Positions 4,367-20,654 of a stretch of DNA of 64,000 bases are shown piece by piece. Source of the stretch: Cloeon dipterum (Eukaryota > Arthropoda > Insecta > Ephemeroptera > Baetidae); assembly GCF_949628265.1 (NCBI RefSeq), contig NC_088787.1, positions 14,932,501 through 14,996,500 on the forward strand, read 5' to 3'. How positions within the stretch are numbered: the stretch's first letter is position 1; each line of letters opens with the position of its first letter. The notes beneath the pieces were generated by a model. That model saw only the letters and a list, made by a program, of their open reading frames with translations, did not search any database and was not told the DNA's origin. A program made the position numbers and the translations under genes.

Positions 4367-4796
4367 CACAGCGAAGCACAGTTAATTTCAGAGCTTCCCA
4401 CTTCTTAAAGCTTTCTATATCTTCGCTAAATAAAAAACAGTTGTTGTTGTTGTGTTGTATAAATATTCCCTTCCCTGTCTCCTGTCTTGCCCAGTCTTGC
4501 CTACGACGTCCGCCGTCGGAAGGAGGCGTAACCTTTTTGATGGGGGTTCGGGGAGAGGTGTGAGCGACTGCTGTGCGATTCAAAAAAGAGCTGATCAGCC
4601 GCGCATGATTTAGACTGCATCGTGACCAGTCGTGACTGTAGCGTGCTTTATATTTATATTTTCTTATCTTATCCATTAATTATTTCTTATTGAAAAAACG
4701 GAAAAAAACCAAGGAAGTCGGTTGTTGGTTTGAGGGTTTCCCTTTGAGTGCAACATTTAAATTAAATTATCCTATATTATCAAAAGGTCTCAAAAA
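4367..4796. other. Spacer between VPS50 and the DDX55 pseudogene
   Basis: This stretch of about 430 bp lies upstream of the VPS50 start on the minus strand and upstream of the helicase pseudogene start on the plus strand. It probably holds the VPS50 promoter and 5' UTR and, originally, that of the helicase copy. It contains a small GC-rich patch near 4500-4600. No gene was recognised; open frames here show no family resemblance. Confidence 0.5.
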
Positions 4797-5710
4797 ATGT
4801 TGATTAAATCGTGGGACAAACTGGACTATATAATAGTCCACCCATTCTGAAACACCTCGAGGAACTTGACTTTAAGAAGATGACCCCAGTGCAGGTTTGA
4901 AAAACACGAAAGAGCATGTTTATAATTAAATCTTCACACGACAATTATCAGGCTGCAGCAATTCCTTTGTTCTTGAAAAATAAGGATGTTGGAAGTGGCA
5001 AAACTCTAGCATTTTAATTCCAATGCTAGAAATGCTCTAGGTAGGTTCATTCAAGATTGATTTTAATCAATTCAGCTTTGAAACTATTTAAATATATAGA
5101 AAAGAAGCGAGCCTCTCAAGAAAAGAGAATGTGGAGCTGTTGTCATTTCACCAACAAGAGAGCTGGCTACTCAAACACATATATGAAGTTCTCACGGGAT
5201 TTCTGGAACACCTTCCACACTTCACAATTATGTGCGTATGTAACTCAAAATCATTCAGACTACAAAAAATGTAGCTTGCCTATTCCATTTGCAGAGATTA
5301 CTTGTTGGGGGCTGTCCTGTGCACCATATGATGTCCAGGCGTTGTCCAAGCAGGGAGCAAACGTAATTTTTGCAACTACAGAGGCCATCGCTTTTAAATT
5401 TGATGGACCGACAACTGCACACTGGGCTCCTGCAGGCAGTGAAAAGCTTGGTAAACTATCCTGTTTCCCAATTTAAAACATAATTGACTATTCATACTTT
5501 TTAGGAACTTCTGGATTTGGACATGGGATTTCAGGTTGCTTTGAAATCAATCTTGGTCCGTCTGCCTCGACAACGTCGAACAGGGTCTATTTTCAGCCAC
5601 CCAAACTAAAGAAGTGCAAGCATTGGTCATGGCAGGCTTAAGAAATCCTGTTTCTGTAGCTGTGTCTGAGAAAAAAATGGGAGATGCCAAAGGCAATGAG
5701 AGGTAGAAAC
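4797..5710 (+). pseudogene. Broken 5' half of a DDX55/SPB4 DEAD-box RNA helicase gene
   Basis: DDX55/Spb4 is a nucleolar DEAD-box helicase of 60S ribosome maturation. Pieces in order are an N-terminal MLIKSWDKLD start at 4797, then LKHLEELDFKKMTPVQ, a short GT...AG intron (about 4894-4950), AAIPLFLKNKDV, GSGKTLAF (motif I), ISPTRELATQ (motif Ia, near 5145), SKQGANVIFATTEAI (near 5350), a second intron (about 5451-5504), LLDLDMGFQ, LPRQRRTG, FSATQTKEVQALV (motif III, near 5600) and LRNPVSVAVSEKKMG. It is broken by several frameshifts and stops. The residues just before GSGKT are deleted and motif II (DEAD) is missing. The second helicase domain is absent. Retained introns mean a DNA-level duplicate, not a retrocopy. 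It stops about 130 bp before the palindrome border. A functional DDX55 presumably exists elsewhere (inference). Confidence 0.85.
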
Positions 5711-5842
5711 ATTGTAAGTCTCTAAACAAGTTCTTTAACTTATAATCTTGATTTAGATTAAAAATTAGGATTTACAGTAAGAAAAAAACTCTTGCTTCAA
5801 TGCTGTTTTTTCAATCATTATTTTAACCTTCGCTTTTTTACT

Positions 5843-8800
5843 TTTATACTTAAAGGTTAATTAAAATGAAAAAAATTGCATCCTAAATAACCTCTCATGA
5901 TACATATTATGGATATTGAAACACTACTTGTTGTCTTGTCTGTGCCAGCCTCTGGGGCTCGTCACTCGGTTGAACGGCTCCGTCAGCGCGCTCACGCCCT
6001 CGCCGGGAGGGTGCTCACAGGGTTGGGTCGGTGTCTAGGGGGTGGGTCGACCTCACTTTTGACTCAACGATCGCGGCTCAAAATGTTAGCATCTAGGTTC
6101 TAGAGGAATTTATTAAAAGAGAAACAAGTGGGTTTTGGTTAGGTAAGAAGAAACTAAATTTATTGGCTAACTCGAATTAAAAATACTAAAGAAAATTGGC
6201 TCTACGTTAACGGGGTAGGAAAACGTTGCTGAAGGCAACGTGAAAAACCTCCCCAAAAGCAAGTGGCTTTAATTGAATTTACTTTAAGTTTAAAAACTTA
6301 AATGACGCTTAATTCTAACAGCTAAATCTCTCACATCTTAAAACATATTCATTACACACTATCAGAAAAATACAATGTACAATTAAAGTCTATCACAAAA
6401 TTATACAGTCGATATTAACATACAAGAAAACTTATACTAAAATACAAAATCTAATTTTAATGGATATTTAGAGTAGGCTTATAGCCTACCATCTATAGAC
6501 TCCAATTTTTACAAACTAATACAAATGAAAGATTGGCCAAACCATTCTCAGGGATTTTTATGGGTAGAGTAACAGACCTATGTGCCTACTCTTGACTGTG
6601 TGAAAATTGGTTTCACTATATTAATCCCTATTAGCAAGGTACTTGACGCAGAGAAAACAGCCTTTGCTTCCATCACATGAAATTAAAATCCTTCGATTAA
6701 TTAACACACATCGGTCAATAGCCACAGGTTTCACACACAAATGAGAGGAGAAATAGCCTAATTCATTTTTAGGCTGATTTTTTCTCGCTCGATTTTGTCA
6801 ACCAAGTTGACTCTGTGTACGATGCCTGAGTCCAGTTCTCTCACGTCATCACACATGGCAAGGTTGACTTTGTCATCCCACCACCAATCAAGGCGCCCAT
6901 TGACGGACCCTTGAAAGCTCAGGTTTGACTCGGGCGGACGCTCGAACAGGGACGCTCCGTTCTTTAGGTTGAACCAGTACTTGCGGCTGGCAGACTTGCT
7001 GAACGCCACAGTCCAAGGTTCCTTGACTACCTTCATGAACGATATCCCTCCGACCACGTGGAACTTGTCCTCGCTGTCGTCGAGCATGATGCACACTCTC
7101 CTGTCTCCGCCCAACTGCTTGATCTTCTTCGAGTTGAGCTTTGCAAACAGGGAATCCAACTTGTCCATTGTGAAGGCTTGCTTCACCTCGAACCGAGTCA
7201 GGTCGATTCTGCTGGGTCTCTCGATGGCCTTGGCGAACAGTTTGCAGTGGTGAACGCGCTCGTCAAAGCTTAGATGGCCAATGACGCGGCCACCTAACAC
7301 ATGCGCATCCATCACATGCAGCACTTTTATGTTGCTTTGCGCACGAGCCTCTCCACGCAGCTCCGACACCAGTTCTCCAAACACCAGGGTGCGTGCAGGA
7401 AGGTCGAGCTTAGCGTTTTGCACGCTAACGTTGAGCCATCTGCCGCCTTTGCCGTCTAGATAGTAGACATTGCCACGTCCCACGCCTGCAAATCAAAAAT
7501 GGTCATATTAAGTATTTAATTCGTCTAATTTGTACCAGGTGAAGACTTACTTAAAAACAGTGTGCAATTATTCTTGGAAGTAGGTCCTGCATTCATAGCG
7601 TAGCACCTCCACTCCAGCATTTTCATGTGGTCCTGCAGAATCGTGGGCGTCAAACCCCAGGAGTGTTTGCGGTAATCCCATTCGAGTGCAGCGAACGCGG
7701 CCTCTGGATGCTCCACTCTAGGAACAGTTCGGCTTTCGTCCGGGATGCGCCACAGGTCCAGACAGCTCTTCCTCATCTCAGCCTGTCTTGGCTCGAACAA
7801 TGTGGAGTCCTGGCAGAATGCTTTGATTTTGTTCAGTGAGACAACCTGCCGATGGCCAAGATCGTTGTTTGACGTTGTCAGGTAGTCTACGAGCTCCTTG
7901 TCGCCAGCAATAATATCCTCAGGAACTAAGCTGACAACTGCTTTGCCAGTAACAGTTGCCAGTTTTTCGAACTCCTCGTTAGCAGTCCACATGAGATCTC
8001 TCACGGCAGACACGTCAGCTAGTTTATGCCTGCATACAGAAAGAGAGAATTAGTATAAAGTCTAACATCAAATAATATATATTATTATATATTGGCATGG
8101 ATACTCAATAAAATATAAATATTGACTTTGAATCAAGACATTTGTCACTCACTTTTAATTTTCTAATTTCAAAATTATTTTTTATGGTTGTTCGGCACAA
8201 AAGGAAACACTACACACTACATTTTTTAATTTCAACTAAAGACTATGATAGACCTCAAAAGTTTTAAGATAATAATATAATTAATGGGTCTATTGTTTCA
8301 ATTTATTTCAAATGAATAAAGGTTTAAATAATGTTGAGTATAGATAATACATACTTGCAAACCAGATATCTTTCGGAATTAGCAGGCCGACTTGTATTAG
8401 GCTTGAAGATGCAGATTTCTCTGAAAGCTCTCCTCATCAGCCAAATGAGACCAGCACTGAATAGGGTGAAGACATCAAACAGCTTGACTACGAAATGTCC
8501 ACCGGGGCGAGTAATGCTCAGGGCTACCAGGCACTGACACAGGTACAGCCGATGAGATAGGATTTCCTGGATGTTTTCCTGGCCCTCGACGGAGAAGCCT
8601 CCGTCAGCCATGGTGAAATGGACTCCCTTGCCATCTGTGTTTGCGAGTACGTGCTCCTGGAAGTGACGAATGTTGGCTGGCTTGTAGATGTCACCATCTC
8701 CATCCTCCCCATAGCACGGCTCAAACGTCTCCGCACTCGCTGCGTAGAAGTCTTCCAGCTTGAAGTCATTGCCCCCGGCGCGAAGTGTGAAGCCAAAGCC

Positions 8801-11800
8801 CTTGGCTTGCCACCTCTTCCGCCAGAGTACGTATTCCGAGAAACCACCTGGTCCAGCGCAGACGTCAGCAAAGTACAGGAGCTCATCTACTGGCACCGTT
8901 TTTTGGCCTTCTTCGTTCTTCGGGTCGGTGAACATCATCCCACACACGGCATCAATGTTGGCCATTTTTACTGCGGCTCTGTTTTGGAAAAACACTTTAC
9001 CGATGCCTTCAAACGGATTGCATTTTCCTCGGGCTTTTCTCAGCTCTGTGTCGTTCAGCTGGTCGAACACAGACTTTGCGCTGAGTAATGTCTTCAAAAC
9101 CGCGGGAGAACAAAACTTGTGCTCGTCGTCCATGGTGCGTTTGTCCTCACCGAGCTGGATCCAGTTTGGGGAGAGACCAGTGGGCCCTTTAGAACCAGGC
9201 AGCCATCTCAGCGTCTCCTTCGCTTGGACCACCTCCGAGTCCCAATCCCACTCGATGGACTTGCTTTCCAGTCCTGCCACCTTCAGGCCAAAGCCCCGAC
9301 GACCGCTCTGAGTGCTAGGGGCTACAGGTGCGGTGATTCCTTGCCCGTCTCGGCCGAGGCCACCACCCTCCTTGTAGCCCATTTTGGCCATCAGCCGCAT
9401 CGCAACTGACGACCTTGCCAGCATCGCTCGTTTCGTGTCCGGAGCATCGTCTCCGTCCTTGCCTATAAAAACCAGAAAATGAAATAATATTAATATATTT
9501 TTCTGAATTTTCTGAAAGTATATATTATATCATGATAAAAAGCAGGGTTTAATTAAAATTCAAAAGAGCTGAAGAGTTTTTAATGAAAGGGAATGATAAA
9601 AGAGAGAATTGCATGTGTACTGTACAAAAACAAATAATTTAGACTGCATGAGGGCAGTCGCGCAATTTTCACCAGCCGGTCAAAATTCAGTTCGGAAAAA
9701 GCCGGCTGTTTTAAACCGGTGTTTAGCCGGCTAAATTGGCCAACTTTAGCTTGCCTTCAACCAAAATATGTATGTAAAATGAGGAGAAAATGGCTTCACC
9801 TGAAATATCATGATTTTTAATGAAAATTCTCATTTTCATTCTAAAAAAAAAATCATAAACCTTTATCTCATGATTTTAAACCCGCATTTAAATTTTTCAA
9901 CGCCCTTGTGTATTAATTACATTAACCTTAATAATCTGAGCTTGATTTGTGCCTTAATATTCGACTACATAATTTTAAAAATGCCAATTATCTCTTGATT
10001 TCAGTCGGCTTTTTCGAAAAACTGATTTAGAAATAAAAAATCACTTTAAAATTTTACTTTTAAACATATGACCAGCATATACGGCCAAAAAGCAGCGCGT
10101 CCACTTTATATACTTTAAAAACCTTGGCCTCGAACAGAGAGCGAAACCTTGAAACTCGCGTTTGAAAAGAACCCCTGCCTCTTTGTCTGGAAAGGAAGCG
10201 GCAGGACGCTCTCCCCTTAACAATAAGCTTCACGCAGCCAGTTTGTGCGGGCGGTTAGTTCTTGCCTCACACTCTGCAAGAGGCAAGAGCGTTTCGAAGT
10301 TTCGAAGCACACACACGCGCGCGCAGGTCAAGCGTTCACGTGACTCAATCTCGCCATCTCATTGGCTAAAATCGGGCACTTCAGCGTGAAGCACTATTTT
10401 TTGGAGCTTGGAACATCTTTTGGAGCAAGTGGAAGGGAAACGAAAAGCCAAGCAAGCCACAAGGCTAGTTTTATTGATCACGGTCATGGTTTTCACATAA
10501 TAATGTTGTAATTAAATTCAACTTTTCTGAAACAATAATACCCAGTAAAATCTCTGAATTCGTATATACATAATTGTCGGCCCGAAGTGCCCGTAAGACG
10601 TCATTTTTGTCTCCTGCACTGCGTTTATTCTTGACCCTTTTTCACCGGAGGCAGGCGGAGCTTATAGCTAGATTTACGGCGGCTGTCCACGCGTGTATTA
10701 AAATTGTGCCGGCTGGCGCTTTTACAATTATTTCTCTATGCAGTTTTTATTAATAAATACAAATATAAATCAGTGGAAGTGATAACCGATCGAAATCAAA
10801 TGAAATTGTGCAGGAGGACCGAATTTAGAGCCGATAAAAAAATTTTAAGGAATGGCGGGACGCGGGACACGTGCTTGGGAGATAGTCAATAATATTGTTA
10901 GTAATCATGTAGTTTGCTTACCTCGCGGTCTCTTAGTCGCTTGCATGATGTCGCCCTCTCGAGGCATCATTCTGAATACCTAATTAACGTGATTCCAGCA
11001 AGGATATGGAGTTAGAAACTCACAAAAATTATTGCGCGTGATATAGGCAATTAGGAAGTGGCAGAGTATGTACGTCCGTGCGGTTCAACGTTCGAGAGGG
11101 CGATGCGGGCAATGGCGATATGAAGCAACCTTTTTCTTTAACCTGAACCAGGATTGGAAAAGACACCATCTTGTACGCCCTCTCCAGGGTGACCAGCGTG
11201 TGTCACTGAAATTTAAGATGGCGCTTTTTTCGTCTCTTATTTTTTGTCTTTTCAGTGTCACCTTTGCCAACACAACGGTACTACTTCGCTGGCCCAGACC
11301 GAAAACCATGCATGTACATGTACCAACATAACACTTTCATACACGTGAAAATTCCCCTTTCTCACCAGCTAAACGGAAGCGCTACACTGACTACAGACAC
11401 AGACAAAGAAAAGAAGAGTTAATATGAATATCTGCATGGTCTTATTCCAAAACAAAATCAATCTGCATTCATAGAAGTGATCATTTCCGGTAGTTTCTTT
11501 GTTCTTTTTTTATAGACTATAGAGCAAAAATTATATCTCATATTCTTCAACACACGGAGCAAGTGCAGAGAGTCTTTTTGAAACTCGAAATATTTTTCAA
11601 CTCCATACTGTTTAACTCAGAAAATAGGGTATTTTTGCAAAATTGGCAGAGCAACGGTTTGTTTTGTACTTGTTTGCACTTGCAGCAGGGTTGCCAACCT
11701 CTTAGCAGGCTTTATTATAAGATGAAAGAACTAAATAAAAATTACTTCGGAAAGCACAAAGCTTCATTAAATTTTTAGTCAACATTAAAGGCGCTTCGTC

Positions 11801-11911
11801 TGATTAGTGACGAGCTGTTTATTGTCCGTAGTTCTGCACAAATTTATCCTACTAAACTATATAAACCAAATGTGATATTTTTGTATAATTTAAGGATTCA
11901 AATAAAAAATA
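5843..11911 (+). repeat. Left arm of a 12.7 kb palindrome
   Basis: Bases 5843-11911 recur as the reverse complement at 12452-18502. Paired positions sum to 24364 through the CMTR1 gene. They sum to 24345 outside a 19 bp insertion at 6031-6049, which is left-arm only, and to 24363 inside a one-base A-run difference near 11745. Every CMTR1 exon translates identically in both arms. Spot-checked non-coding stretches near 6150, 8090, 10540 and 11340 are also identical. Substitutions seen by eye lie near the edges: three within 5856-5900, one at 11313, and several in 11830-11911. Arm contents are a CMTR1 gene, its 3' region (5843-6757), its upstream region (10971-11723) and a fragment of an interspersed repeat. 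Confidence 0.97.
6758..10970 (-). CDS. CMTR1: CMTR1, cap-specific mRNA 2'-O-ribose methyltransferase 1 (left-arm copy)
   Basis: CMTR1 methylates the 2'-O of the first transcribed nucleotide to make cap 1 in the nucleus, using SAM. Four exons, 10922-10970, 8355-9462, 7551-8029 and 6758-7485, join in frame with GT-AG borders to give 787 residues (human about 835). Exon 1 encodes MMPREGDIMQATKRPR. Exon 2 starts with a G-patch (MGYKEGGGLGRDGQG), then the RrmJ/FtsJ-type methyltransferase with the SAM loop DVCAGPGGFSEY. Its K-D-K-E residues fit the aspartate of MADGG, the lysine of HFVVKLFD and the glutamate of NSERY. The C-terminal exon holds the guanylyltransferase-like region and ends in a WW domain (EPWTVAFSKSASRKYWF). 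No break was seen. The start at 10970 is preferred because exon 1 ends in GTAAGC and splices in frame. The gene faces its twin copy head to head. Confidence 0.95.
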
Positions 11912-11918
11912 GCAATAT
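11724..11918 (+). repeat. Truncated copy A of a ~730 bp interspersed repeat
   Basis: This copy starts with GAAAGAACTAAATAAAAA and shares the first ~195 bp of the repeat, then is cut at AGCAATAT. There it abuts the far end of copy B in the opposite orientation. In its last 80 bp it resembles copy C (18627-19354) more than the mirror copy B, for example ACTATATAAACC rather than ACTATAAAAACC. No coding capacity or terminal inverted repeats were recognised, so the class is unknown. Confidence 0.8.
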
Positions 11919-12451
11919 AGGGATCTCGCCCATTATTAAGTGGTAAATAGTTTGCTAAATCAGTTTAGGGTCTGGGTCCAGGACTAATCATTATTACGCT
12001 TGTGGTTATCAAGAGTTGAGCAAACCACCTAAGCTGATATAACATACGAGTGTTTTAAAATGAGGTCTACAGTCATCAATTGATATTTTGATACGACCCG
12101 CACCACACACTAAACGTAGAGACCAGAAATTTCTAATCGACTCTTGTATATGACTTTGGTACGGTTTAATAATTCAAACCAACAAATAAAATGAGGATGA
12201 TATGTACCCCTTAACCCTTTTTTTAAATATATTTTTATTGAAAACTCTCCCCTCCCTTTATGCTCACTATAAAACTATTCACTTTACTTCCATAGAATAA
12301 TAAGAGCTCTATATATATGTTTTAACCATTATTTGCGTATTTCAGATGGCCGAGTTTCTGTCAAATAATATTATTGGATATTCGCCAAATAAGCGATGTG
12401 TTACGTAAACATAAGATTTTTAAATAAAGATATCTGGTTAATAAATCGCAA
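11912..12451. other. 540 bp loop (spacer) of the palindrome
   Basis: This is the only asymmetric part in the centre of the palindrome. Apart from its first 7 bp it is the distal ~530 bp of repeat copy B, reading on the minus strand. No gene is seen. Confidence 0.9.
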
Positions 12452-12640
12452 TATTTTTTATTTGAATCCTTAAATAATACAAAAATATCTCATTTGGTTT
12501 TTATAGTTTAGTAGGATAAATTTGTGCAGAACTACGGACAATAAACAGCTCGTCACTAATCAGACGAAGCGCCTTTAATGTTGACTAAAAATTTAATGAA
12601 GCTTTGTGCTTTCCGAAGTAATTTTTTATTTAGTTCTTTC
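11919..12640 (-). repeat. Copy B of the ~730 bp interspersed repeat (minus strand)
   Basis: Reading on the minus strand from 12640 to 11919, this copy aligns along its length with copy C at 18627-19354, with scattered differences of several percent by eye. Its first ~190 bp form the innermost part of the right palindrome arm; the rest is the palindrome loop. It ends with GGGCGAGATCCCT, as does copy C, which marks the shared repeat end. Confidence 0.85.
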
Positions 12641-15600
12641 ATCTTATAATAAAGCCTGCTAAGAGGTTGGCAACCCTGCTGCAAGTGCAAACAAGTACAA
12701 AACAAACCGTTGCTCTGCCAATTTTGCAAAAATACCCTATTTTCTGAGTTAAACAGTATGGAGTTGAAAAATATTTCGAGTTTCAAAAAGACTCTCTGCA
12801 CTTGCTCCGTGTGTTGAAGAATATGAGATATAATTTTTGCTCTATAGTCTATAAAAAAAGAACAAAGAAACTACCGGAAATGATCACTTCTATGAATGCA
12901 GATTGATTTTGTTTTGGAATAAGACCATGCAGATATTCATATTAACTCTTCTTTTCTTTGTCTGTGTCTGTAGTCAGTGTAGCGCTTCCGTTTAGCTGGT
13001 GAGAAAGGGGAATTTTCACGTGTATGAAAGTGTTATGTTGGTACATGTACCTGCATGGTTTTCGGTCTGGGCCAGCGAAGTAGTACCGTTGTGTTGGCAA
13101 AGGTGACACTGAAAAGACAAAAAATAAGAGACGAAAAAAGCGCCATCTTAAATTTCAGTGACACACGCTGGTCACCCTGGAGAGGGCGTACAAGATGGTG
13201 TCTTTTCCAATCCTGGTTCAGGTTAAAGAAAAAGGTTGCTTCATATCGCCATTGCCCGCATCGCCCTCTCGAACGTTGAACCGCACGGACGTACATACTC
13301 TGCCACTTCCTAATTGCCTATATCACGCGCAATAATTTTTGTGAGTTTCTAACTCCATATCCTTGCTGGAATCACGTTAATTAGGTATTCAGAATGATGC
13401 CTCGAGAGGGCGACATCATGCAAGCGACTAAGAGACCGCGAGGTAAGCAAACTACATGATTACTAACAATATTATTGACTATCTCCCAAGCACGTGTCCC
13501 GCGTCCCGCCATTCCTTAAAATTTTTTTATCGGCTCTAAATTCGGTCCTCCTGCACAATTTCATTTGATTTCGATCGGTTATCACTTCCACTGATTTATA
13601 TTTGTATTTATTAATAAAAACTGCATAGAGAAATAATTGTAAAAGCGCCAGCCGGCACAATTTTAATACACGCGTGGACAGCCGCCGTAAATCTAGCTAT
13701 AAGCTCCGCCTGCCTCCGGTGAAAAAGGGTCAAGAATAAACGCAGTGCAGGAGACAAAAATGACGTCTTACGGGCACTTCGGGCCGACAATTATGTATAT
13801 ACGAATTCAGAGATTTTACTGGGTATTATTGTTTCAGAAAAGTTGAATTTAATTACAACATTATTATGTGAAAACCATGACCGTGATCAATAAAACTAGC
13901 CTTGTGGCTTGCTTGGCTTTTCGTTTCCCTTCCACTTGCTCCAAAAGATGTTCCAAGCTCCAAAAAATAGTGCTTCACGCTGAAGTGCCCGATTTTAGCC
14001 AATGAGATGGCGAGATTGAGTCACGTGAACGCTTGACCTGCGCGCGCGTGTGTGTGCTTCGAAACTTCGAAACGCTCTTGCCTCTTGCAGAGTGTGAGGC
14101 AAGAACTAACCGCCCGCACAAACTGGCTGCGTGAAGCTTATTGTTAAGGGGAGAGCGTCCTGCCGCTTCCTTTCCAGACAAAGAGGCAGGGGTTCTTTTC
14201 AAACGCGAGTTTCAAGGTTTCGCTCTCTGTTCGAGGCCAAGGTTTTTAAAGTATATAAAGTGGACGCGCTGCTTTTTGGCCGTATATGCTGGTCATATGT
14301 TTAAAAGTAAAATTTTAAAGTGATTTTTTATTTCTAAATCAGTTTTTCGAAAAAGCCGACTGAAATCAAGAGATAATTGGCATTTTTAAAATTATGTAGT
14401 CGAATATTAAGGCACAAATCAAGCTCAGATTATTAAGGTTAATGTAATTAATACACAAGGGCGTTGAAAAATTTAAATGCGGGTTTAAAATCATGAGATA
14501 AAGGTTTATGATTTTTTTTTTAGAATGAAAATGAGAATTTTCATTAAAAATCATGATATTTCAGGTGAAGCCATTTTCTCCTCATTTTACATACATATTT
14601 TGGTTGAAGGCAAGCTAAAGTTGGCCAATTTAGCCGGCTAAACACCGGTTTAAAACAGCCGGCTTTTTCCGAACTGAATTTTGACCGGCTGGTGAAAATT
14701 GCGCGACTGCCCTCATGCAGTCTAAATTATTTGTTTTTGTACAGTACACATGCAATTCTCTCTTTTATCATTCCCTTTCATTAAAAACTCTTCAGCTCTT
14801 TTGAATTTTAATTAAACCCTGCTTTTTATCATGATATAATATATACTTTCAGAAAATTCAGAAAAATATATTAATATTATTTCATTTTCTGGTTTTTATA
14901 GGCAAGGACGGAGACGATGCTCCGGACACGAAACGAGCGATGCTGGCAAGGTCGTCAGTTGCGATGCGGCTGATGGCCAAAATGGGCTACAAGGAGGGTG
15001 GTGGCCTCGGCCGAGACGGGCAAGGAATCACCGCACCTGTAGCCCCTAGCACTCAGAGCGGTCGTCGGGGCTTTGGCCTGAAGGTGGCAGGACTGGAAAG
15101 CAAGTCCATCGAGTGGGATTGGGACTCGGAGGTGGTCCAAGCGAAGGAGACGCTGAGATGGCTGCCTGGTTCTAAAGGGCCCACTGGTCTCTCCCCAAAC
15201 TGGATCCAGCTCGGTGAGGACAAACGCACCATGGACGACGAGCACAAGTTTTGTTCTCCCGCGGTTTTGAAGACATTACTCAGCGCAAAGTCTGTGTTCG
15301 ACCAGCTGAACGACACAGAGCTGAGAAAAGCCCGAGGAAAATGCAATCCGTTTGAAGGCATCGGTAAAGTGTTTTTCCAAAACAGAGCCGCAGTAAAAAT
15401 GGCCAACATTGATGCCGTGTGTGGGATGATGTTCACCGACCCGAAGAACGAAGAAGGCCAAAAAACGGTGCCAGTAGATGAGCTCCTGTACTTTGCTGAC
15501 GTCTGCGCTGGACCAGGTGGTTTCTCGGAATACGTACTCTGGCGGAAGAGGTGGCAAGCCAAGGGCTTTGGCTTCACACTTCGCGCCGGGGGCAATGACT

Positions 15601-18502
15601 TCAAGCTGGAAGACTTCTACGCAGCGAGTGCGGAGACGTTTGAGCCGTGCTATGGGGAGGATGGAGATGGTGACATCTACAAGCCAGCCAACATTCGTCA
15701 CTTCCAGGAGCACGTACTCGCAAACACAGATGGCAAGGGAGTCCATTTCACCATGGCTGACGGAGGCTTCTCCGTCGAGGGCCAGGAAAACATCCAGGAA
15801 ATCCTATCTCATCGGCTGTACCTGTGTCAGTGCCTGGTAGCCCTGAGCATTACTCGCCCCGGTGGACATTTCGTAGTCAAGCTGTTTGATGTCTTCACCC
15901 TATTCAGTGCTGGTCTCATTTGGCTGATGAGGAGAGCTTTCAGAGAAATCTGCATCTTCAAGCCTAATACAAGTCGGCCTGCTAATTCCGAAAGATATCT
16001 GGTTTGCAAGTATGTATTATCTATACTCAACATTATTTAAACCTTTATTCATTTGAAATAAATTGAAACAATAGACCCATTAATTATATTATTATCTTAA
16101 AACTTTTGAGGTCTATCATAGTCTTTAGTTGAAATTAAAAAATGTAGTGTGTAGTGTTTCCTTTTGTGCCGAACAACCATAAAAAATAATTTTGAAATTA
16201 GAAAATTAAAAGTGAGTGACAAATGTCTTGATTCAAAGTCAATATTTATATTTTATTGAGTATCCATGCCAATATATAATAATATATATTATTTGATGTT
16301 AGACTTTATACTAATTCTCTCTTTCTGTATGCAGGCATAAACTAGCTGACGTGTCTGCCGTGAGAGATCTCATGTGGACTGCTAACGAGGAGTTCGAAAA
16401 ACTGGCAACTGTTACTGGCAAAGCAGTTGTCAGCTTAGTTCCTGAGGATATTATTGCTGGCGACAAGGAGCTCGTAGACTACCTGACAACGTCAAACAAC
16501 GATCTTGGCCATCGGCAGGTTGTCTCACTGAACAAAATCAAAGCATTCTGCCAGGACTCCACATTGTTCGAGCCAAGACAGGCTGAGATGAGGAAGAGCT
16601 GTCTGGACCTGTGGCGCATCCCGGACGAAAGCCGAACTGTTCCTAGAGTGGAGCATCCAGAGGCCGCGTTCGCTGCACTCGAATGGGATTACCGCAAACA
16701 CTCCTGGGGTTTGACGCCCACGATTCTGCAGGACCACATGAAAATGCTGGAGTGGAGGTGCTACGCTATGAATGCAGGACCTACTTCCAAGAATAATTGC
16801 ACACTGTTTTTAAGTAAGTCTTCACCTGGTACAAATTAGACGAATTAAATACTTAATATGACCATTTTTGATTTGCAGGCGTGGGACGTGGCAATGTCTA
16901 CTATCTAGACGGCAAAGGCGGCAGATGGCTCAACGTTAGCGTGCAAAACGCTAAGCTCGACCTTCCTGCACGCACCCTGGTGTTTGGAGAACTGGTGTCG
17001 GAGCTGCGTGGAGAGGCTCGTGCGCAAAGCAACATAAAAGTGCTGCATGTGATGGATGCGCATGTGTTAGGTGGCCGCGTCATTGGCCATCTAAGCTTTG
17101 ACGAGCGCGTTCACCACTGCAAACTGTTCGCCAAGGCCATCGAGAGACCCAGCAGAATCGACCTGACTCGGTTCGAGGTGAAGCAAGCCTTCACAATGGA
17201 CAAGTTGGATTCCCTGTTTGCAAAGCTCAACTCGAAGAAGATCAAGCAGTTGGGCGGAGACAGGAGAGTGTGCATCATGCTCGACGACAGCGAGGACAAG
17301 TTCCACGTGGTCGGAGGGATATCGTTCATGAAGGTAGTCAAGGAACCTTGGACTGTGGCGTTCAGCAAGTCTGCCAGCCGCAAGTACTGGTTCAACCTAA
17401 AGAACGGAGCGTCCCTGTTCGAGCGTCCGCCCGAGTCAAACCTGAGCTTTCAAGGGTCCGTCAATGGGCGCCTTGATTGGTGGTGGGATGACAAAGTCAA
17501 CCTTGCCATGTGTGATGACGTGAGAGAACTGGACTCAGGCATCGTACACAGAGTCAACTTGGTTGACAAAATCGAGCGAGAAAAAATCAGCCTAAAAATG
17601 AATTAGGCTATTTCTCCTCTCATTTGTGTGTGAAACCTGTGGCTATTGACCGATGTGTGTTAATTAATCGAAGGATTTTAATTTCATGTGATGGAAGCAA
17701 AGGCTGTTTTCTCTGCGTCAAGTACCTTGCTAATAGGGATTAATATAGTGAAACCAATTTTCACACAGTCAAGAGTAGGCACATAGGTCTGTTACTCTAC
17801 CCATAAAAATCCCTGAGAATGGTTTGGCCAATCTTTCATTTGTATTAGTTTGTAAAAATTGGAGTCTATAGATGGTAGGCTATAAGCCTACTCTAAATAT
17901 CCATTAAAATTAGATTTTGTATTTTAGTATAAGTTTTCTTGTATGTTAATATCGACTGTATAATTTTGTGATAGACTTTAATTGTACATTGTATTTTTCT
18001 GATAGTGTGTAATGAATATGTTTTAAGATGTGAGAGATTTAGCTGTTAGAATTAAGCGTCATTTAAGTTTTTAAACTTAAAGTAAATTCAATTAAAGCCA
18101 CTTGCTTTTGGGGAGGTTTTTCACGTTGCCTTCAGCAACGTTTTCCTACCCCGTTAACGTAGAGCCAATTTTCTTTAGTATTTTTAATTCGAGTTAGCCA
18201 ATAAATTTAGTTTCTTCTTACCTAACCAAAACCCACTTGTTTCTCTTTTAATAAATTCCTCTAGAACCTAGATGCTAACATTTTGAGCCGCGATCGTTGA
18301 GTCAAAAGTGAGGTCGACCCAACCCTGTGAGCACCCTCCCGGCGAGGGCGTGAGCGCGCTGACGGAGCCGTTCAACCGAGTGACGAGCCCCAGAGGCTGG
18401 CACAGACAAGACAACAAGTAGTGTTTCAATATCCATAATATGTATCGTGAGAGGTTATTTAGGATGCAGTTTTTTTCATTTTAATTATCCTTTAAGTATA
18501 AA
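12452..18502 (-). repeat. Right arm of the 12.7 kb palindrome
   Basis: This is the reverse complement of 5843-11911. It lacks 19 bp present in the left arm; the gap maps near 18315, where the left arm carries the extra bases between two copies of GGGTCG. The outer border near 18502 falls in an A/T-rich stretch where similarity ends abruptly. Confidence 0.97.
13394..17606 (+). CDS. CMTR1: CMTR1, cap-specific mRNA 2'-O-ribose methyltransferase 1 (right-arm copy)
   Basis: This copy mirrors the left-arm gene. Exons 13394-13442, 14902-16009, 16335-16813 and 16879-17606 total 2364 bp including the stop, giving 787 residues. The G-patch, the SAM loop DVCAGPGGFSEY, the catalytic K-D-K-E candidates and the C-terminal WW domain are all present. 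All four exons translate to exactly the same protein as the left copy. The two start codons are 2.4 kb apart and diverge, so any promoter sequence lies in duplicate within the arms. The 3' region (17607 to about 18250) has AATAAA-like signals near 18200 and 18250. Both copies look functional, so gene dosage is doubled if the assembly is right. Sequence alone cannot tell which copy is ancestral. Confidence 0.95.
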
Positions 18503-18626
18503 ATTCAAATCTCTAAAATTAATCTGAAAAGTCAAGGGCGCGTTTTAGGAGTAGTTTCATTTATAGTAGATTATCTTAATGGAATTTAAAACTAATTTAA
18601 ATTAATACTGGGAGCAATATTATGTG

Positions 18627-19354
18627 AAGAAAGAACTAAATAAAAAAATATTTCGGAGAGCACAAGCTTCATTAAATGTTTTAGTCAACATTAAAGGCGC
18701 TTCCTCTGATGAGTGACGAGCTGTTTATTTTCCGTAGTTCTGCACAAATTTATCCTTACTAAACTATATAAACCAACTGAGATATTTTTGTATAATTTAA
18801 GGATTCAAATAAAAAATAGCAATATTGCTATTTATTAACCAGATATATTTATTTAAAAATCTTATGTTCACATAAGCAGACATCGCTTATTTGGCGAATA
18901 ACCAATAATATTATTTGACAAAATCTCGGCCATCTTAAATACGCGAATAATGGTTGAAACATATAGAGCTCTTATTATTCTATAGAAGTAAAGAGAATAG
19001 TTTTATAGTGAGCATAAAAGGTGGGGAGAGTTTGCAATAAAAATATATTTTCAAAAAGGGTTAAGGGGTCCCAATCATCCTCATTTTATTTGTTGGTTTG
19101 ACTTATTAAACTGTACCATAGTCATATACAAGAGTCGTTTAGGAATTTCTGGTCTCTACGTTTAGTGTGTGGTGGGTCGTACCAAAATATCAATTGATGA
19201 CTGTAGACCTCATGTTAAAACACTCGTATGTTATATCAGCTTAGGTGGTTTGCTCAACCCTTGATAACCACAAGCGTAATAATGATTAGTCCTGGACCCA
19301 GACCCTAAACTGATTTAGCAAGCTATTTACCACTTAATAACGGGCGAGATCCCT
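18627..19354 (+). repeat. Copy C of the ~730 bp interspersed repeat, just outside the right arm
   Basis: This copy runs from GAAAGAACTAAATAAAAA to GGGCGAGATCCCT and matches copy B along its whole length and copy A over its first ~195 bp. It lies about 125 bp beyond the outer end of the palindrome, in the same orientation as A and inverted relative to B. B and C therefore flank the right CMTR1 unit as inverted repeats. It contains the short palindrome TAGCAATATTGCTA at the point where copy A is truncated. Confidence 0.88.
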
Positions 19355-19510: not shown

Positions 19511-20654
19511 TCATTGCAGAAGAGAAGGGGGCGTAGTAGGTGCTGGTGTAGGTGGTGAAGGACTTGCGGTTACAAATTCAACGATGATCAATCCAATGAT
19601 TATTAGCGCAACGACAAATGCTACTGACGCACACCAGCACAGCTTTCTGCGTCTACTATTTTGGTAGCGTGAGGCTTGCTCCAGTTGTTGCCGACCCATG
19701 TTTACGTCTGTATGAACTCGCTCGATGTTGTCCTCAATATTTGCTGTGGAAATTATGAGATCAGATAGTTTCATGGGGTAAACTGTGAGCAATGACGTGG
19801 TGAAATATTTCTCTAGAAATGAGGAATGAGTATTCCGTTTTAAAAAGCTAGACAATGGATTCAACGATAAAACCTTATTAACGTTCAACGCTCACCTACA
19901 ACTTCTCCTTGGTCATGAACCATAGCACTTAACTCCCTCATGATTTCGTTGACATCCAAAACATCTTCCTCAATTTGTTTGATCCTTTTTTCTCGCTCTT
20001 GCAACATGTCCTTTTCATAATCCAATTCTCGTTGCATTTGCTTCTGTTTGGCGATTAGCTGCGCTCGTTCTTCAAGTTCATTATCCTGCTCATACTCATT
20101 GTCCAAAGAACGAGTTGGCTGGAGCGCATGGGCTCGCAATCTCAATGCTACTTGCTAATTTATTAATTTTAGAACAAAATGAATAAGTGATTTTCTAATT
20201 ATTTACGTTCTGCATTTGCCCGTAACGTTTGATGGCGTCTTTGAATTCAGTCTGCAGTCTCTCAAATTGCAACCTTTGTGGTTTTGCTCCTCGCTTCACT
20301 AAAAAATTCAACTTCTGGATGCCCCTTGTTGTTTCGCCAACAAGCTGGTTGGTGCTCAGCTGCTCAATGTGTCTAAGATTTTAAATTCACCTTGATATGT
20401 TATCATTTAAGTGCTTATTTAAGTTACAAGTTGTCTCTCAACCCAAGACAGTCACGATCAGTTCCTAGAATTTTCATTGCCTCTTCCAGCTTTTTCCAGC
20501 TTTGGTTTATGGTGTATACATTGGTTGATATGCTTTCACACAACTGGTAGAACTCAGTGGGACTGAAAGTACTAAAATCTACGTTGGGGACCCTTTGCTC
20601 TGTCGCACCATAGCCTCTGGAAGACCCTGCTCCCGCAAAATCCTGTCTCTCCAT
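19511..20654 (-). CDS. Syx7: Syntaxin-7/12-type endosomal Qa-SNARE
   Basis: Syntaxin-7 (Drosophila avalanche) drives fusion of early and late endosomes. Exon 1 begins MERQDFAGAGSSRGYG and carries the Habc start. The next exons give NLHIEQLSTNQLVGETTRG and then FKDAIKRYGQMQN. The third exon (from 19896) carries the SNARE region with RIKQIEEDVLDVNEIM and MVHDQGEVV. The last exon (19511-19743) gives ANIEDNIERVHTDV, a basic RRRKLCW stretch, a tail anchor (VAFVVALIIIGLIIVEFV) and the stop. All joins hold in frame. The layout Habc, SNARE, tail anchor is standard. Unusually, about 20 residues rich in Pro and Thr follow the membrane anchor, whereas most syntaxin-7 proteins end within a few residues of it. 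The start at 20654 is the first methionine and fits family length. Confidence 0.92.

What the first reader, a model, noticed from the sequence alone, without database searches (positions are those of the whole stretch)
5843..18502. 12.7 kb near-perfect palindrome with an intact CMTR1 gene in each arm
Two ~6.1 kb inverted arms with a 540 bp loop each carry a complete CMTR1 gene that translates identically. Large palindromes with genes kept intact are best known from sex chromosomes and from recent amplifications. A duplicated cap-1 methyltransferase in head-to-head arrangement is, to my knowledge, not described. It could raise CMTR1 dosage or be sex-linked. An assembly artefact, such as a chimeric hairpin read, must be excluded, but differences between the arms argue against a simple copy error.
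Basis: partly seen in the sequence, partly recalled or inferred. Interest (0 to 1): 0.85.

Follow-up and report, generated by a model that had tools for sequence, protein, structure and literature searches.

The report
Old gene palindrome carrying twin CMTR1
In what is probably an insect genome, a gene for an RNA cap-modifying enzyme sits twice in mirror image, and the two copies look anciently separated yet kept identical by copying from one to the other; this is a clean new example of a known phenomenon.

Summary
The palindrome is in the sequence as described: arms 5842-11911 and 12452-18503, with 7 substitutions and 2 indels over 6,051 aligned bases, and a 540-bp loop. Each arm holds the same 4-exon, 787-aa CMTR1 gene, head to head.

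Two facts were missed. First, 18618-19354 is a third, diverged inverted copy of the right arm's inner end plus the loop (42 substitutions in 726 aligned). The layout is therefore forward / inverted / forward, as a double template switch would leave. Second, 6 of the 7 arm substitutions lie within 57 bp of an arm end. There the arms differ as much (6/107) as the third copy does; the other 5,944 bp hold one substitution where about 344 would be expected at that rate. A relic on another chromosome indicates that each arm gained its own mutations at the inner edge.

Best reading: an old inverted duplication homogenised by arm-to-arm gene conversion, not a recent amplification and unlikely to be an assembly artefact. 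Sex linkage could not be tested. Two further CMTR1 copies with open exons 2-4, one divergent copy and one decayed fragment exist. Precedents: Drosophila Hsp70/Amylase pairs, C. elegans inverted gene pairs. New member of a known kind.

The parts
5842..11911 (-). left arm of the palindrome, 6,070 bp
12452..18503 (+). right arm of the palindrome, 6,052 bp
11912..12451 (.). loop (540 bp); its first 7 bp (11912-11918) still match T of the third copy and of the C5 relic; L proper starts at 11919
6758..10970 (-). CMTR1 copy A1: exons 10922-10970, 8355-9462, 7551-8029, 6758-7485; 787 aa
13394..17606 (+). CMTR1 copy A2: exons 13394-13442, 14902-16009, 16335-16813, 16879-17606; 787 aa, identical to A1
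18618..19354 (-). third, diverged inverted copy of 11919-12651 (right arm inner end T' plus L); 42 substitutions in 726 aligned, 8 indels
18504..18617 (.). 114-bp spacer at the inferred second junction, unexplained; no other match in the window
11918..11919 (.). inferred first template-switch junction (end of T joined to the far end of L), no base overlap
4602..5755 (.). left flank, 87% identical copy at C2:14437213-14438355

Best explanation
An old inverted duplication of one CMTR1 locus, kept uniform by gene conversion between its arms. Inferred origin: the ancestral locus was left flank - CMTR1 on the minus strand - T - L (loop sequence, inverted) - right flank. During repair synthesis the copying strand left its template at the end of T (now 11918/11919), copied backward from the far end of L through T and the whole gene (11919-18503), then switched back and resumed near the start of T (about 18618), copying T and L again. 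One such event gives what is seen: gene x2, T x3, L x2, in forward / inverted / forward order. Since then, ectopic gene conversion between the paired arms has erased nearly all differences, stopping about 60 bp from each arm end, so the ends kept their full age (about 6% divergence). Both genes keep complete ORFs and about 0.9 kb of nearly identical flank on each side, so both are probably expressed and supply one identical cap-1 2'-O-methyltransferase at doubled gene dose. Shown: layout, divergence pattern, ORFs, constraint. Inferred: the switches and their order, conversion, expression, dosage.
For: Layout: three copies of T, two of L, two of the gene, forward / inverted / forward. Age: arm ends 6/107 substitutions, third copy against right arm plus loop 42/726 (Fisher p = 1.0), rest of the arms 1/5,944 (p = 5e-40 against the third copy); 6 of 7 arm substitutions fall in 1.8% of the arm (p = 2e-10). 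Polarity: a 105-bp relic at C5:28142783-28142887, beside a decayed CMTR1 copy, carries T running into L, so T-L is the ancestral join and the left-arm join is new. At the inner edge the left arm shares the relic's state at two of three substitutions and at a 6-bp stretch missing from the right arm, and is itself derived at one. Gene: best solved-structure match is human CMTR1, 8p4e_O, E 1.8e-194, query 33-754, with K239, D364 and K404 (roles recalled) aligned to identical residues. Constraint: pairwise dN/dS 0.15-0.24 among A, B and C; A has the lowest branch N/S, 25/65, against 39/43 in B (p = 0.011) and 39/75 in C (p = 0.36).
Against: No reads, second individual or related species could be examined, so shared polymorphism and within- versus between-species identity, the standard proofs of conversion, are missing. 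Junction 1 shows no microhomology and 114 bp at junction 2 are unexplained. A GC-biased conversion trace is weak: A has 16 AT-to-GC and 11 GC-to-AT four-fold changes against 18 and 31 in B plus C (p = 0.09; against B alone p = 0.57, against C alone p = 0.027). Edge divergence rests on six substitutions, and the choice of 57 and 50 bp as 'edge' was made after seeing them.
Confidence: 0.72

Rival explanations
1. Two events: an older inverted duplication left the 18618-19354 copy, and a much later inverted duplication made the palindrome. The arm ends look old only because they came from, or recombined with, pre-existing diverged repeats. Little or no conversion is needed.
For: A core with 1 difference in 5,944 bp is what a very recent copy would show; the third copy is diverged, as a separate older event would be.
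Against: Both the outer and the inner arm ends show divergence like that of the third copy, yet no third copy of the outer end was found in the window. The right arm's inner edge carries changes absent from the left arm, the third copy and the relic.
Confidence: 0.2
2. Assembly artefact: a chimeric fold-back read or a mis-joined inverted contig, or interior identity produced by polishing.
For: No reads are available, and most differences sit near unique flanks, where polishing with short reads would keep them.
Against: A fold-back read cannot give both arms independent changes at the inner edge when polarised by a relic on another chromosome, nor a 19-bp indel, nor an asymmetric loop that is itself present as a diverged copy next door. 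Polishing could erase a few differences but hardly some 340 expected ones (inference).
Confidence: 0.06
3. Sex-linked ampliconic palindrome: the arms are kept because C2, or this part of it, does not recombine in one sex, and the genes serve the germ line.
For: [quoted passage not shown] CMTR1 copies B and C lie on the same chromosome.
Against: No sex data. None of three recalled dot-chromosome marker loci lies on C2, a weak test whose markers disagree. Palindromic gene pairs also occur on autosomes: Hsp70 pairs on Drosophila 3R (PMC3924832, passages).
Confidence: 0.07

Closest known systems
Drosophila Hsp70Aa/Ab, Hsp70Ba/Bb and Amy-p/Amy-d palindromic pairs (PMC3924832, five passages seen)
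   Same: Insect gene pairs in mirror orientation, homogenised by ectopic gene conversion.
   Different: Different genes. Concerted evolution there is backed by several species and shared polymorphism; in Amylase it is confined to coding sequence, whereas here the whole 6-kb unit, introns and flanks included, is uniform.
C. elegans inverted homologous gene pairs such as F44E5.4/F44E5.5 (PMC1803023: outline, first of two parts of Results, Discussion)
   Same: Divergent gene pair, long near-identical arms and a short spacer, read as an old inverted duplication, perhaps maintained by gene conversion.
   Different: Arms about 2.2 kb with a 126-bp spacer there, about 6.06 kb with 540 bp here; conservation across three species was shown there and is not testable here.
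Human Y and mammalian X palindromes (search listing and abstract starts only: PMC3723533, PMC8981503)
   Same: Arms over 99% alike through arm-to-arm conversion.
   Different: Sex-linked and many of them larger; sex linkage here is unknown.
DUP-TRP/INV-DUP rearrangements by replicative template switching (PMC4352052, abstract and outline)
   Same: Forward / inverted / forward order with an inverted middle copy and two new junctions.
   Different: Those are human disease alleles whose junctions use inverted repeats and microhomology; here only the 0.2-kb T is in three copies and the first junction has no microhomology.
Palindromes in Folsomia candida and Adineta vaga (PMC7953838, passages; PMC5490193 seen in a listing only)
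   Same: Gene-bearing inverted duplications in an invertebrate genome.
   Different: The original reports counted blocks of at least five genes in parthenogenetic animals; here one gene, mode of reproduction unknown.

Membership tests
CMTR1 (cap-1 mRNA 2'-O-methyltransferase) | FtsJ methyltransferase domain with an N-terminal G-patch | tested here: met
   PF01728 E 3e-33 and PF01585 E 6.8e-16 in the exon-2 frame
CMTR1 (cap-1 mRNA 2'-O-methyltransferase) | full-length similarity to human CMTR1 and conserved catalytic K-D-K | tested here: met
   8p4e_O E 1.8e-194 over query residues 33-754 of 787; K239, D364 and K404 (residue roles recalled) identical
CMTR1 (cap-1 mRNA 2'-O-methyltransferase) | cap-1 methyltransferase activity and expression | not testable with these tools
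   sequence only
Gene palindrome under arm-to-arm gene conversion | long arms over 99% identical, short spacer, intact genes | tested here: met
   6.07 and 6.05 kb, 7 substitutions in 6,051 aligned; 540 bp; two identical ORFs
Gene palindrome under arm-to-arm gene conversion | borders markedly more diverged than the interior | tested here: met
   6/107 at the ends against 1/5,944 inside; edges chosen after seeing the data
Gene palindrome under arm-to-arm gene conversion | within-species identity above between-species identity, or polymorphism shared between arms | not testable with these tools
   no relative genome or second individual is held
DUP-TRP/INV-DUP (double template switch) | forward / inverted / forward order with matching copy numbers | tested here: met
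   gene x2, T x3, L x2
DUP-TRP/INV-DUP (double template switch) | microhomology or repeat use at junctions | tested here: inconclusive
   no base overlap at 11918/11919; junction 2 blurred by a 114-bp spacer
Sex-chromosome ampliconic palindrome | sex linkage and germ-line expression | not testable with these tools
   no reads or sexed samples; weak marker check does not favour C2

The most novel reading that the evidence does not exclude
CMTR1 was amplified in this lineage (two identical palindromic copies, two more with open exons 2-4, and one divergent copy), and the palindrome persists because selection favours a high, uncorrupted dose of cap-1 methylation, for example in RNA interference or self/non-self RNA marking, with conversion acting as the repair device.
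Probability: 0.12. Interest if true: 0.65.

Novelty: new member of a known kind. Interest (0 to 1): 0.42.

Why it matters
It is a compact natural test case of concerted evolution. One structure holds its own clock (a diverged third copy and unconverted edges) and its own homogenised interior, so the reach and limit of conversion in an inverted gene pair can be read to within tens of bases. It also shows that CMTR1, which I recall as single-copy in most animals, has multiplied in one arthropod genome, which makes dosage or division of labour among cap methyltransferases testable there.

Tried and rejected
Transposon-borne origin: the loop has 3 matches in the genome, one of them 41 bp long, and no terminal repeats were recognised by eye. 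Dispersed short pieces do lie inside the arms: 48 matches, the two arms included, for the upstream segment (40 of 159 candidates scored), and 61, both arms and the C2:14.437 Mb copy included, for window 4600-6500, most of them to about 5976-6305. One 76% match at C2:18757868 covers 5806-5925 and so spans the left border. I therefore cannot exclude that a repeat took part in the rearrangement.

A second CMTR1 locus at C2:14.437 Mb was suspected because the left flank is duplicated there (87%); a protein search of 30 kb there found none.

Identifying the animal: an arthropod (94 RR-cuticle matches), probably an insect (5 odorant-receptor-family matches). Five chromosomes of 33-43 Mb plus five small scaffolds recall small mayflies such as Cloeon. 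That is a guess from memory; searches gave no matching record, and the two mayfly genome notes listed have 11 chromosomes and 456-503 Mb. An 18S search did not complete twice.

Sex-chromosome markers were inconclusive; a literature search on a conserved insect X found 0 papers.

Full report
OBSERVATION. The window is C2:14932501-14996500 of a 190-Mb genome with five chromosomes of 33-43 Mb and five small scaffolds. The palindrome is present at the stated place: arms 5842-11911 and 12452-18503, loop 540 bp, 6,051 aligned positions, 7 substitutions, a 19-bp and a 1-bp indel. The repeat listing shows 5,703 bp as 100%; the script finds one substitution inside that stretch, 11313/13051, outside the exons.

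THE GENES. Each arm carries a 4-exon gene with GT-AG introns of 1,459, 325 and 65 bp; the 787-aa products are identical. Exon 1 is my model. The start codons are 2,423 bp apart, head to head. The right arm holds 942 bp before the ATG and 897 bp after the stop. Domains are G-patch and FtsJ. The best solved relative is human CMTR1, with K239, D364 and K404 aligned to identical residues (residue roles recalled).

THE THIRD COPY. 18618-19354 is an inverted, diverged copy of 11919-12651, that is, of the right arm's inner 200 bp (T') plus the loop: 42 substitutions in 726 aligned, 8 indels, K2P 0.060 (91.9% with gaps; alignment). The order from left to right is gene(-) T | L T' gene(+) | 114 bp | T L(inverted): forward, inverted, forward. 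Just to the right, a minus-strand frame with a SNARE domain begins at 19514.

AGE AND CONVERSION. Six of the seven arm substitutions lie within 57 bp of an arm end; with even spread the chance is 2e-10, though the edge width was set after seeing them. End divergence (6/107) matches that of the third copy (42/726; p = 1.0). The remaining 5,944 bp hold one substitution, where 42/726 x 5,944, about 344, would be expected. A 105-bp relic beside a decayed CMTR1 copy on C5 carries T running into L without a break. It polarises the inner edge: the left arm matches relic and third copy at two of three substitutions and at a 6-bp stretch missing from the right arm, and is itself derived at the remaining one. 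So both arms mutated on their own, the T-L order is ancestral, and the left-arm join (11918/11919) is new. The simplest account is one double template switch followed by conversion that stops near the borders. Against it: no microhomology at the first join, an unexplained 114-bp spacer, a dispersed repeat piece that spans the left border, and no population or species data.

THE FAMILY IN THIS GENOME. A search with the whole protein gave 16 exon-level matches (the tool scores only its best candidates, so this is a lower bound). They resolve into A1 and A2 here; B at C2:30.37 Mb; C at C2:32.58 Mb; E at C4:28.73 Mb (one open frame of 757 aa, 53% identical); a decayed 3' fragment D at C5:28.14 Mb; and a remote match on C1 (31%, perhaps CMTR2, not tested). 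Exons 2-4 of B and C are open under the models. For B no convincing first exon was found; for C the best candidate lacks an ATG at the matching place. dN/dS is 0.22 (A-B), 0.15 (A-C) and 0.24 (B-C); synonymous sites are saturated against E. Branch counts N/S are A 25/65, B 39/43, C 39/75: A is the most constrained, significantly against B only (p = 0.011; against C p = 0.36). A GC-biased trace is suggestive against C (p = 0.027), absent against B (p = 0.57), and p = 0.09 against both.

ARTEFACT. A fold-back read should give a mirror without independent edge changes and without a diverged third copy. Polishing could have removed a few interior differences; it hardly explains the loss of some 340 (inference). 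Reads were not available, so I leave 6% for an artefact.

FUNCTION. Drosophila CMTr1 nulls are viable with minor defects in siRNA-mediated silencing, and CMTr1/CMTr2 double mutants lack cap-adjacent methylation but live (PMC8904806: passages; abstract start). A doubled, identical CMTR1 here most simply raises dose; neither expression nor benefit was tested.

COMPARISON. Palindromic Hsp70 and Amylase pairs in Drosophila (PMC3924832, passages), inverted hsp70 pairs in soldier flies (PMC3071340, passages) and inverted gene pairs of C. elegans (PMC1803023) are the same kind of thing. Searches for CMTR1 + palindrome and CMTR1 + gene duplication + arthropod found no paper in the held library. Verdict: real, probably old, probably converted; a new member of a known kind with an unusually readable history.

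Noticed in passing
window 4602-5755; C2:14437213-14438355 (in L028): The left flank of the palindrome has an 87% identical copy about 495 kb away on the same chromosome; no CMTR1 was found in the 30 kb around it.
   Followed up: partly
L009 (C4:28724000-28733900), about 4874-7111: A divergent CMTR1 in one open frame of 757 aa: it lacks introns 2 and 3 of the palindromic gene but appears to keep the acceptor of intron 1 in the same phase.
   Followed up: partly
L008 (C5:28135000-28144900), 5185-6147 and 7784-7888: Decayed 3' part of a CMTR1 copy with a short piece of its upstream T-L region.
   Followed up: yes
window about 5976-6305: A dispersed repeat piece in the outer end of the arms, with many partial matches on all five chromosomes.
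   Followed up: no
chromosome ends read: C1 start, C2 both, C3 start, C4 both, C5 both (L014-L021): No TTAGG-type telomere array in the outer 2 kb of these 8 ends; 6 of the 8 (not L019, L021) look like repetitive, mostly AT-rich, satellite-like DNA (tandem repeats computed only for L014 and L015).
   Followed up: no
window 19514-57453: Ordinary neighbours: SNARE-domain protein, DUF1308 protein, RanBP1-domain/zinc-finger exons (RanBP2-like), isocitrate dehydrogenase, Serinc.
   Followed up: partly
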